Shown here: piece after piece, positions 15,101 to 18,100 of the stretch
Layout: the number at the start of each line of letters is the position of its first letter
Position numbering within the stretch: the stretch's first letter is position 1
NCBI RefSeq assembly: GCF_005405925.1
Contig: NZ_BJHV01000001.1
Location: 3,906,001 to 3,970,000 of the forward strand
Direction: 5' to 3'
From: Streptomyces antimycoticus
GTDB lineage: Bacteria > Actinomycetota > Actinomycetes > Streptomycetales > Streptomycetaceae
Length of the DNA: 64,000 nt
Notes under the pieces: model-generated
The model's input: the letters and a program-made list of their open reading frames with translations, nothing else
The model's database searches: none
Told to the model about the DNA's origin: nothing
Made by a program: the position numbers and the translations under genes

Positions 15101-18100
15101 GCGGTGCGGTGCTGGGCGAGGGCGTCCAGGAAGGCATTGGCCGCCGCGTAGTTGCCCTGGCCCGCACCGCCGAAGACACCGGCGGCGGAGGAGAACAGGA
15201 CGAACGCGGCCAGGTCCGGGTGGTGGTCGCGGGTCAGCTCGTGGAGGTTCCACGCCGCGTCGACCTTCGGGCGCAGTACGTGCGCCATGCGGTCGGGGGT
15301 GAGGGAGGCGATGACGCCGTCGTCCAGGACGCCTGCCGTGTGGATGACGGCGGTCAGCGGGTGCTCGTCCGGGATCGCCGTCAGCACGTCGGCGAGTGCG
15401 TCTCGGTCTGCTACGTCGCAGGTGGCCCAGTGGGCTTCTGCGCCCAACGCCGTGAGCTCGTCCGTGAGTGCGGCGGCGCCTGGGGTTTCCGCGCCGCGGC
15501 GGCTCACCAGCAGCAGGTGGCGGGCGCCGCGCTCGGTCACCACGTGGCGGGCGAAGAGGACGCCCAGGGTGCCGCCGGCGCCGGTGATCAGGACCGTGCC
15601 GTTCGGGTTCCACGCGGCGGCCGGGGCGTCGGCGGGGGCTGTGGCGCGTGCCAGGCGGGGGGCCTTGAGCGCGCCCTCGCGTACGGCGAGTTCCTGTTCG
15701 CCCGTCTCCAGGGCGGAGGGGAGGGCGACGAGGGAGTCCGGGTGGCCGTCGTGGTCCACGAGGATGACGCGGCCCGGGTTCTCCGACTGGGCGGAGCGGA
15801 TGAGGCCGTGGGCGGCGGCGTGGGGGAGGTTGGTGAGGGATTCGGTGGGGGTGGTGCTTGCGGCGCCGGTGGTGAGGATGACCAGGCGGGTGTCCGCGAA
15901 GTGGTCTTCGGTGAGGTAGGTCTGGAGGAGGGTGAGGGTGCGGGCGGTGGCTTCGTGTGCGGCTTGGGTGGGGTTTTCCCCTGTCCCGCCCCTTCCCGCA
16001 ACTATGGGCTCCGCCCCTGGACCCTGGTCCTCAAGCGCCGGACGGGCTTCAAATGCCGCGGCCGGTGCCCCGGCACGCCCTTCGGGCGTGTCCTCAATCG
16101 CCGGACGGGCTTGGGGTGCCGCACCGTGGCCCTGGCCCTCAATCGCCTGGCGGGCCTCAGATGCTGCGCCCGGACCAGCCTGAGATTCCAGCGACACCAC
16201 GATGTAGTCCGGGGCCTTTTCGGCCGCCGTCAGAGTGGTCAGGTCCGGGTAGGTCTCAAGGCCCAGGGGATTGGGGCCCACCGCCACCCAGCCGTCCGTG
16301 GATACCGGGCCGGACGGTGTCGGGATCGGGGTCCAGTCCACGCGGAAGAGGGCGTCCGCCGCGTTGCCGCCGGGGCGGTCGGCGCTGAGCTGGTCCGGGG
16401 AGACCGTGCGCAGGGCGAGGCGTTCCACCTCTGCCACCGGGGCGCCGGTGACGTCGGCGAGTTGCAGGGACACCGTGCCGTTTCCGGCCGACGACAGGCG
16501 GACCCGTACGCTGTCCGCGCCCACCGAGTGGACGCGCACACCGGTCCAGGAGAAGGGCAGTCCGCCCTGGCCCGGGTTCTCGGTCAGGTCGCTGAGGCCG
16601 ATGGTGTGCAGGACGGCGTCCAGCAGGGCCGGGTGCAGTCCGAAGAAGGCGGCGCCGGGTTCGGCGTCCTCGGGGAGGGCGACCTCGGCGTAGACCTCGC
16701 CGTCGCCCCGCCAGGCGGCCCGCAGCCCCTGGAAGACCGGGCCGTAGCCGAAGCCCGCCTCGGCCAGGCCGTCGTAGAGGCCGTCGGTCTCGATGCGCTC
16801 GGTGCCCGCGGGCGGCCAGGCGCTCAGGTCGAACGACGGGGCCGCGGGCGTGCTCTCCGCGAGCACACCGGTGGCGTGGCGCAGCCACGGTTCGTCGTCT
16901 CCGGCCTCGTCGGGACGGGAGTGGAGGGCGAGGGTGCGGCGGCCGGTGTCGTCCTGGGCGCCCACGGCGATCTGGAGTCGGACCCCGCCCCGTTCGGGCA
17001 GGATCAACGGGGCCTCCAGGGTGAGTTCCTCGACCAGGTCGCAACCGGCCTGCTCACCGGCGCGCACCGCCAGTTCCACGAACGCGGTGCCGGGCAGCAG
17101 CACCGCGCCCATGACGGCGTGGTCGGCCAGCCACGGGTGGGTGTCCAGCGCGAGCCGCCCGGTGAGCAGGAAGCCCTCCGCGTCGGCCAGGGACACGGCC
17201 GTGCCGAGCAGCGGATGGTCGGCGGTGCCGAGGCCGAACGAGGAGACGTCGCCGTAGGCGGTACCCGCGTCCAGCCAGTAGTGCTCGCGCTGGAAGGCGT
17301 AGGTGGGCAGTTCGACGCGCTCGGCGCCGGTACCCGCGTAGTACGCCTCCCAGTCGGGGGCCGTACCCCGGGTGTGCAGGGTGGCCAGGGCGGTGGTCAG
17401 GGTCTCGGCCTCGGAACGGTCCTTGCGCAGCGCGGCGGCGAACGCCACGTGCTCGGACTCGCCCGCCAGGCACTCCTGGCCGAGCGCGGACAGCACACCG
17501 TCCGGGCCGAGTTCGAGGTAGGTGGTGACGCCCTGCGCCTCCATCGCGCGCATGCCGTCGAGGAAGCGCACGGCCTCGCGGACGTGGCGGACCCAGAAGT
17601 CGGCGGTGGCGATCTCCGCGGCGGGCGCGATGCCGCCGGTCAGGTTGGAGACCACCGGGATCTTCGGGGCCTCGTACGTCAGGCTCTCGGCGACCTTGCG
17701 GAACGCCTCCAGCATCGGGTCCATCAGCGGCGAGTGGAAGGCGTGGCTGACGGTGAGCCGCTTGGTCTTGCGGCCCTGGGCCTCGAAGCCCTCCGCGATC
17801 TCCACGGTCGCGTCCTCGTCACCGGCGATGACGACCGACATCGGGCCGTTGAGCGCGGCGATCGAGACGCGCTCGGTCAGCAGCGGCGCCACCTCGTCCT
17901 CGGACGCCTGGACGGCGATCATCGCGCCGCCGCCCGGCAGCCGCTGCATCAACCGGCCCCGGGCCGCCACCAGCAGTGCGGCGGCGTCGAGCGAGAGCAC
18001 CCCCGCCACATGCGCGGCGGCGATCTCGCCGATGGAGTGTCCGGAGACCACGTCCGGCTTCAGGCCCCACGACTCGACGAGGCGGAACAGCGCCACCTCG

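What the first reader, a model, noticed from the sequence alone, without database searches (positions are those of the whole stretch)
15967..16171. Intergenic-type palindromic repeats domesticated in frame inside a PKS ketoreductase linker
Module D1 carries three copies of a 31-base core plus a hairpin and a GC-rich flank in the KR structural region. They look like the repeat units scattered between genes in Streptomyces, yet here they stay in the single frame that avoids TGA and add about 70 residues with the recurring peptide ARPAxED. Selfish palindromes colonising coding sequence are known from Rickettsia palindromic elements; I do not know a PKS example. The surface linker may tolerate them, or they may aid recombination between modules.
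Basis: partly seen in the sequence, partly recalled or inferred. Interest (0 to 1): 0.8.

Follow-up and report, generated by a model that had tools for sequence, protein, structure and literature searches.

The report
Intergenic repeat inside PKS ketoreductase loops
A short repeat that Streptomyces normally keeps between genes has got into the coding sequence of a giant assembly-line enzyme, where it reads in frame as an extra surface loop, occurs in several modules, and changes freely without apparent selection on its amino acids.

Summary
The insert is real and derives from an intergenic repeat. The genome holds 84 core hits at up to two mismatches (reversed control 10); 68 lie outside genes, and gaps holding the repeat are enriched between convergent genes (22 of 46, background 12 of 104). 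The exact 21-mer is in 137 of 199 Streptomyces genomes. Four KR loops of one PKS cluster carry it here; 9 of 392 genus genomes carry it in long PKS frames. In 34 aligned loops it sits between the same strand and helix of the KR structural subdomain; sister modules and the matching cluster of G058 lack it. The model is least confident at the insert. dN/dS is 0.96 in the insert and 0.42 in flanks. Nearest relatives are orthologous modules for 28 of 34 flanks but 12 of 34 inserts. 'The single frame that avoids TGA' is wrong: five of six frames are usually open. 'Domesticated' is too strong. Best reading: capture of a terminator-like repeat, spread between modules by recombination, tolerated as a neutral spacer. 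Precedents: Rickettsia palindromic elements, PKS concerted evolution.

The parts
8260..20037 (-). PKS gene with two KS motifs and a C-terminal thioesterase-like end (3925 aa); its first module's KR carries the insert
   Evidence: thioesterase recognised by eye, not scanned
14890..16350 (-). KR region used for alignment and structure model
15967..16171 (-). repeat-derived insert, read in frame between strand DYIVVSL and helix AAHEATARTLTLLQ
15967..16048 (-). unit A: full-length intergenic arm (tail, hairpin, core), translated ARPALEDQGPGAEPIVAGRGGTGENP
16006..16017 (.). GGGCTCCGCCCC hairpin motif of unit A
   Evidence: read
16031..16048 (+). core copy 1 (0 mismatches)
16074..16090 (.). hairpin CACGCCC-TTC-GGGCGTG of unit B
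   Evidence: read; a like arm in intergenic copies
16094..16111 (+). core copy 2, unit B (0 mismatches), translated ARPAIEDTPEGR
16139..16156 (+). core copy 3, degenerate (3 mismatches), translated ARQAIEGQG
21807..21904 (-). second insert in the window (one unit A), same KR loop position, in ORF 20100-28088

Best explanation
A Streptomyces intergenic repeat (arm of about 80 nt: C-rich tail, GGGCTCCGCCCC hairpin, core CCTCAANCGCCGGANGGGCT; at four places here two cores face each other in a long palindrome) lies mostly beside gene 3' ends, so it is terminator-like by position. An arm entered the structural-subdomain loop of a KR in one large PKS cluster of the S. violaceusniger clade. It spread to the same loop of other modules by recombination between modules, changed in length by whole units, and was also exchanged insert to insert. 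It reads in frame as a loop with no detectable selection on its amino acids; the constraint is to stay open, in frame and in that loop. Shown by sequence: the intergenic identity, the shared position, absence in sister modules and in G058's cluster, dN/dS near 1, two G096 modules that share insert and flanks with other modules, two same-genome pairs alike mainly in the insert. Inferred: a single first capture, how it was captured, direction of the transfers, terminator activity, and that the loop is translated as written.
For: Own genome: 54 matches to the 205-base segment, 4 in the PKS cluster (40 of 175 candidates scored, so a lower bound); 84 core hits at up to 2 mismatches, reversed control 10. 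My gene caller put 69 of 84 outside ORFs, 15 inside; one of the 69 is in a PKS ORF, giving 68 and 16: 5 PKS, 7 within 60 nt of a gene 3' end, 4 internal with 2 mismatches (control level). Gaps holding an element: 22 convergent, 23 tandem, 1 divergent of 46; background 12, 64, 28 of 104 (OR 7.0, p 3e-6). Exact 21-mer in 137 of 199 genus genomes, reversed control 1 hit in total. Insert peptide: 29 of 392 genomes, 9 in frames of about 1500 aa or more; 11 of the 42 other matches checked, 11 of 11 outside called genes. Sister modules lack it. G058's cluster has the same KS counts per ORF as G096 (5-2-5-1-3-4-2-3-2; its first and last ORFs are cut by the fetched edges), no insert in the loops printed, and 0 exact cores. 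Loop 25-110 residues in 34 loops with insert, 7-10 in 6 without. Right end GRGGxG in 33 of 34. dN/dS 0.96 (column bootstrap 0.75-1.32) in inserts, 0.415 (0.36-0.47) in flanks, 32 loops; 71 untranslated copies 1.00. Exchange.
Against: A variant form (EPHIDAAGRGG) is in 6 of 34 loops, patchy across orthologous modules, which could mean several captures or exchange with the intergenic pool. Inserts of different modules are nearly as alike between genomes (.810) as within one (.835), so same-genome homogenisation is weak on average. 69 motif-picked PKS units give pN/pS 0.88 and one group (S1, 3 loops) dN/dS 0.65, so slight constraint is not excluded. The fourth own insert is frameshifted in this assembly. 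RNA folding is barely beyond shuffles (z -0.68 intergenic, -1.37 other strand, -0.48 PKS units, -0.38 flank control). Low pLDDT from a 27-row alignment is weak evidence of disorder, and the model draws a helix at 62-72 inside the insert. Gene calls are mine; sequence pairs in dN/dS are not independent.
Confidence: 0.83

Rival explanations
1. Repeated independent insertion: the repeat is mobile and this KR loop is a preferred target.
For: Variant forms occur in loops; 15 of 34 inserts have their nearest relative in another module of another genome.
Against: Same strand and frame in the 34 aligned loops and the same right end in 33, although five of six frames are usually open; no clear internal non-PKS copy among the own-genome hits, and 11 of 11 checked non-PKS matches outside called genes (31 of 42 not checked); no PF01797 match (other transposases not sought); in G096 two modules share insert and flanks with other modules.
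Confidence: 0.2
2. Selected linker: the loop has a function (docking, spacing, solubility) and is kept for it.
For: Four loops in G000 and in G055, seven in G096; the ARPAxE unit is in 34 of 34.
Against: dN/dS near 1, like untranslated copies; length 25-110 residues, 1-3 units.
Confidence: 0.08
3. Ordinary KR linker; likeness to intergenic repeats is chance.
For: KR structural loops vary in length.
Against: Matches of about 78 nt at 83-86% to intergenic copies; loops without insert; 9 of 392 genomes.
Confidence: 0.01
4. Assembly or sequencing artefact.
For: This assembly splits PKS genes that are single ORFs in G055 or G096.
Against: Insert in 9 genomes and in 26 of 28 database proteins by one motif test (the other two show ARPAxE; one of the 28, P0019, appears to be this genome's own).
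Confidence: 0.01

Closest known systems
Rickettsia palindromic elements (RPE)
   Same: Short repeat inserted in frame in coding sequence (passages in PMC10969869, and PMC3733652).
   Different: RPEs are reported in many unrelated genes; this repeat was found translated only in one PKS family, in one loop. No RPE sequence was compared.
REP elements and REP-associated tyrosine transposases (RAYT)
   Same: Dispersed, hairpin-bearing, mostly extragenic; REPs inside genes are reported (PMC3733652 passages).
   Different: No PF01797 match here; arm about 80 nt against the 20-40 bp of that abstract (listing); the word Streptomyces does not occur in that text.
Concerted evolution / gene conversion in modular PKSs
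   Same: Homogenisation of repeated domains within a cluster (PMC4256081 passages).
   Different: Here the shared tract can be nearly the non-enzymatic insert alone while flanks keep module ancestry.

Membership tests
Rickettsia palindromic elements | In-frame insertion of a repeat into ORFs | tested here: met
   0 of 34 loops with a stop; one own copy frameshifted
Rickettsia palindromic elements | Inserted in many unrelated genes | tested here: not met
   own genome: only PKS copies clearly internal; 11 of 42 other matches checked, 11 outside called genes
Rickettsia palindromic elements | Sequence relation to an RPE family / CGTC end | not tested
   no RPE sequence was compared
REP/RAYT system | RAYT (Y1) transposase in the genome | tested here: not met
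   0 matches to PF01797; control rings in 5 of 14 genomes
REP/RAYT system | Many dispersed extragenic copies | tested here: met
REP/RAYT system | GTAG tag at one end | not tested
   element ends were not mapped precisely
Bidirectional terminator | Enriched between convergent genes | tested here: met
   22 of 46 gaps against 12 of 104 (my gene caller)
Bidirectional terminator | Stops transcription | not testable with these tools
   needs RNA data
PKS concerted evolution | Paralogues more alike than ancestry predicts | tested here: met
   insert identity .835 same-genome modules.810 other modules in other genomes.814 orthologues; flanks .65-.735.64-.72.82; seven nearest inserts are same-genome modules
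Rfam families | Match to a curated RNA family | tested here: not met
   0 matches at gathering threshold in 4 loci

The most novel reading that the evidence does not exclude
The inserted repeats act as recombination patches: they give distant modules stretches of near-identity where flanks are only 60-72% alike, keep exchanging among themselves (and perhaps with the intergenic pool), and so raise the rate at which this assembly line reshuffles.
Probability: 0.25. Interest if true: 0.78.

Novelty: new variant of a known kind. Interest (0 to 1): 0.62.

Why it matters
It adds a giant modular enzyme to the known cases of intergenic repeats read in frame in proteins, with comparable clusters available without insert, with one unit and with several. 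It marks a loop of the KR structural subdomain that tolerates 25 to 110 residues, of use to PKS engineers, and offers a tracer of exchange between modules that seems free of selection on sequence.

Tried and rejected
Rejected: conserved KR peptide; selected linker; mobilisation by a Y1/RAYT transposase of this genome; a known RNA family (4 loci). RNA folding gave no useful signal. Literature: ten searches; among the listed titles and abstract starts I saw none on this Streptomyces repeat or on intergenic repeats inside a PKS. Listings were capped and the library lacks most subscription papers, so this is no proof of absence. I did not identify the polyketide; azalomycin/niphimycin in my notes was a guess.

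Rows dropped or not used: leave out the frameshifted own loop (H3) and two G150 loci that repeat the S. niphimycinicus ones; L117 (S. violaceusniger NBRC 13459, frameshifted) did not pass my motif and was not added; of the 17 PKS loci two (L101, L108) were used directly, and some others are the same genomes under G handles. Of the loops that one search shows in G180, G357 and G372 I aligned 3, 2 and 4. The first loop motif missed several loops, added by a second. dN/dS used 32 of the 34 loops (not G096 modules D2, D3, which have no orthologous insert).

Full report
What is there. The segment 15967-16171 lies in the minus-strand PKS ORF 8260-20037. It holds three direct copies of a 33-nt unit, the third degenerate, and the core is above chance in the window (4 hits, 0.82 expected). 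In frame it gives EARQAIEGQG...QARPAIEDTPEGR...EARPALEDQGPGAEPIVAGRGGTGEN, a loop of 72 residues.

Where the sequence comes from. In the same genome the 205-base segment has 54 matches (40 of 175 first-look candidates scored, so a lower bound). The 18-base core has 84 hits at up to two mismatches, the reversed control 10. I fetched surroundings and called genes with a codon-usage script: 69 of 84 outside ORFs, 15 inside. One of the 69 is in a PKS ORF that my caller missed, so 68 and 16: five PKS sites, seven within 60 nt of a gene's 3' end, four internal hits with two mismatches, which the control makes unremarkable. The oriented copies share a layout: C-rich tail, GGGCTCCGCCCC hairpin, core. 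Four places carry two cores facing each other, starts 24-25 bp apart; the three that I folded make near-perfect long hairpins. Unit A of the insert resembles one arm, unit B the other, but in the PKS they stand head to tail. Of 46 gaps holding an element 22 are convergent, 23 tandem, 1 divergent; of 104 other gaps of 80 bp or more 12, 64 and 28. By position this is a gene-end, terminator-like repeat; activity is inferred. The exact 21-mer is in 137 of 199 genus genomes, up to 272 copies in one.

Where it sits in the PKS. Four KR loops of this cluster carry it: window 15967, window 21807, C1:3970.7 kb and C1:4007.4 kb. It lies between the strand ending YVVVxL and the helix AAHxATxxxLxLLQ. That stretch has 7-10 residues in the six loops without insert that I aligned, 25-110 (median 65) in 34 with insert. 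The AlphaFold2 model of the KR (27-row alignment) has mean pLDDT 80; its stretches of three or more residues below 50 are 59-62 and 72-124, within the insert, where it also draws a doubtful helix at 62-72. Its best solved relatives are PKS modules and ketoreductases such as EryKR1 2fr0.

Distribution. With insert plus flanks as query, 69 of 150 genus genomes match; in the rows listed (the list was cut) strong matches in the insert are in G000, G055 and G096, and the others are mostly KR flanks. With the insert peptide alone 29 of 392 genomes match, 9 of them in frames of about 1500 aa or more. In G055, G096, G165, G372 and G384 most frame lengths fit those of this cluster's genes; G150, G180 and G357 also show shorter frames (contig ends or split genes), and of theirs I aligned 2, 3 and 2 loops, which fall in orthologous modules. 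Of 42 non-PKS matches I checked 11, chosen for long frames; 11 of 11 lie outside called genes. In the protein database 28 proteins matched, one of them apparently this genome's own; 26 of 28 show the insert by one motif test and the other two the ARPAxE motif. The named species belong, as I recall, to the S. violaceusniger clade. In the genome collection 23 loci matched: L101-L117 read as PKS loops, one frameshifted, and L118-L123 look intergenic by reading, without gene calls. The G096 and G058 clusters have the same KS motifs per ORF (5-2-5-1-3-4-2-3-2, 27 in all; two G058 ORFs are cut by the fetched edges); G058 has no insert in the loops printed and no exact core copy. The repeat is wide in the genus and the PKS insert narrow, so the direction is repeat to PKS.

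How it evolves. Over 32 loops in five orthologous groups, dN/dS is 0.96 in the insert (column bootstrap 0.75-1.32) and 0.415 in the flanks (0.36-0.47); group values for inserts are 1.07, 0.90, 1.04, 0.89 and 0.65, for flanks 0.16-0.50. Copies outside the PKS read in the same frame give 1.00 (71 copies), 69 motif-picked PKS units 0.88. Amino acids of the insert are thus little or not constrained. Among 34 loops the nearest relative by flanks is the orthologous module for 28, a same-genome module for 6, other for 0; by insert 12, 7 and 15. Insert identity is .814 between orthologues.835 between modules of one genome.810 between different modules of different genomes; flanks .82.65-.735.64-.72. 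So inserts carry little module ancestry, and only a weak same-genome signal on average. In G055 the inserts of two modules are 97% identical over 138 nt with flanks at 60 and 72%; in G384 two are 96% over 216 nt with flanks at 66 and 70%, identity falling at or near the insert's edges. In G096 modules 2 and 3 of the four-module gene carry inserts identical to those of other modules together with flanks 88-99% identical to them, while G000 and G055 have none there: conversion or module replacement.

Five of six frames are usually open in the element; the used frame is open in 55 of 60 copies. The shared strand and frame therefore speak for common descent rather than for a forced frame. 'Domesticated' implies a function that the dN/dS does not support.

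Limits. Gene calls are mine. The capture, its mechanism, the direction of transfers, terminator activity and translation are inferred. The fourth own copy is frameshifted; intact homologues exist in relatives; this assembly splits other PKS ORFs too, so error is possible. The polyketide is not identified. Papers: passages seen of PMC10969869, PMC3733652, PMC4256081, PMC4681348, PMC1525189, PMC1590033 and PMC8269248; for others only the search listing.

Noticed in passing
20100-28145 and 27650-37351: Two overlapping PKS ORFs here correspond to one ORF of 5802 aa in G055 and 5945 aa in G096: a frameshift in this assembly or strain.
   Followed up: partly
G000:C1:3996079-4008240 and 4007259-4021346: The fourth insert-bearing gene is split by a frameshift within the insert; intact homologues of 8639 and 8765 aa exist. 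L117 (S. violaceusniger NBRC 13459) also leaves the frame in its insert.
   Followed up: partly
G000:C1:4031400-4047851 and 4047371-4056169: Another PKS gene is split here and similarly in G055, but single (8230 aa) in G096.
   Followed up: no
2510-3445 (+): VinK-like acyltransferase beside the PKS (PF21124, E 5.5e-27), which suggests an aminoacyl-type starter (recalled).
   Followed up: no
G000:C1:4443309-4443894: Seven repeat cores in one intergenic stretch, spaced 75-100 bp.
   Followed up: no
G000:C1:1519005, 3434993, 4370433, 6615198, 7221874, 7603288: The core overlaps the 3' end of called genes, where TGA on its reverse strand may supply the stop codon.
   Followed up: no
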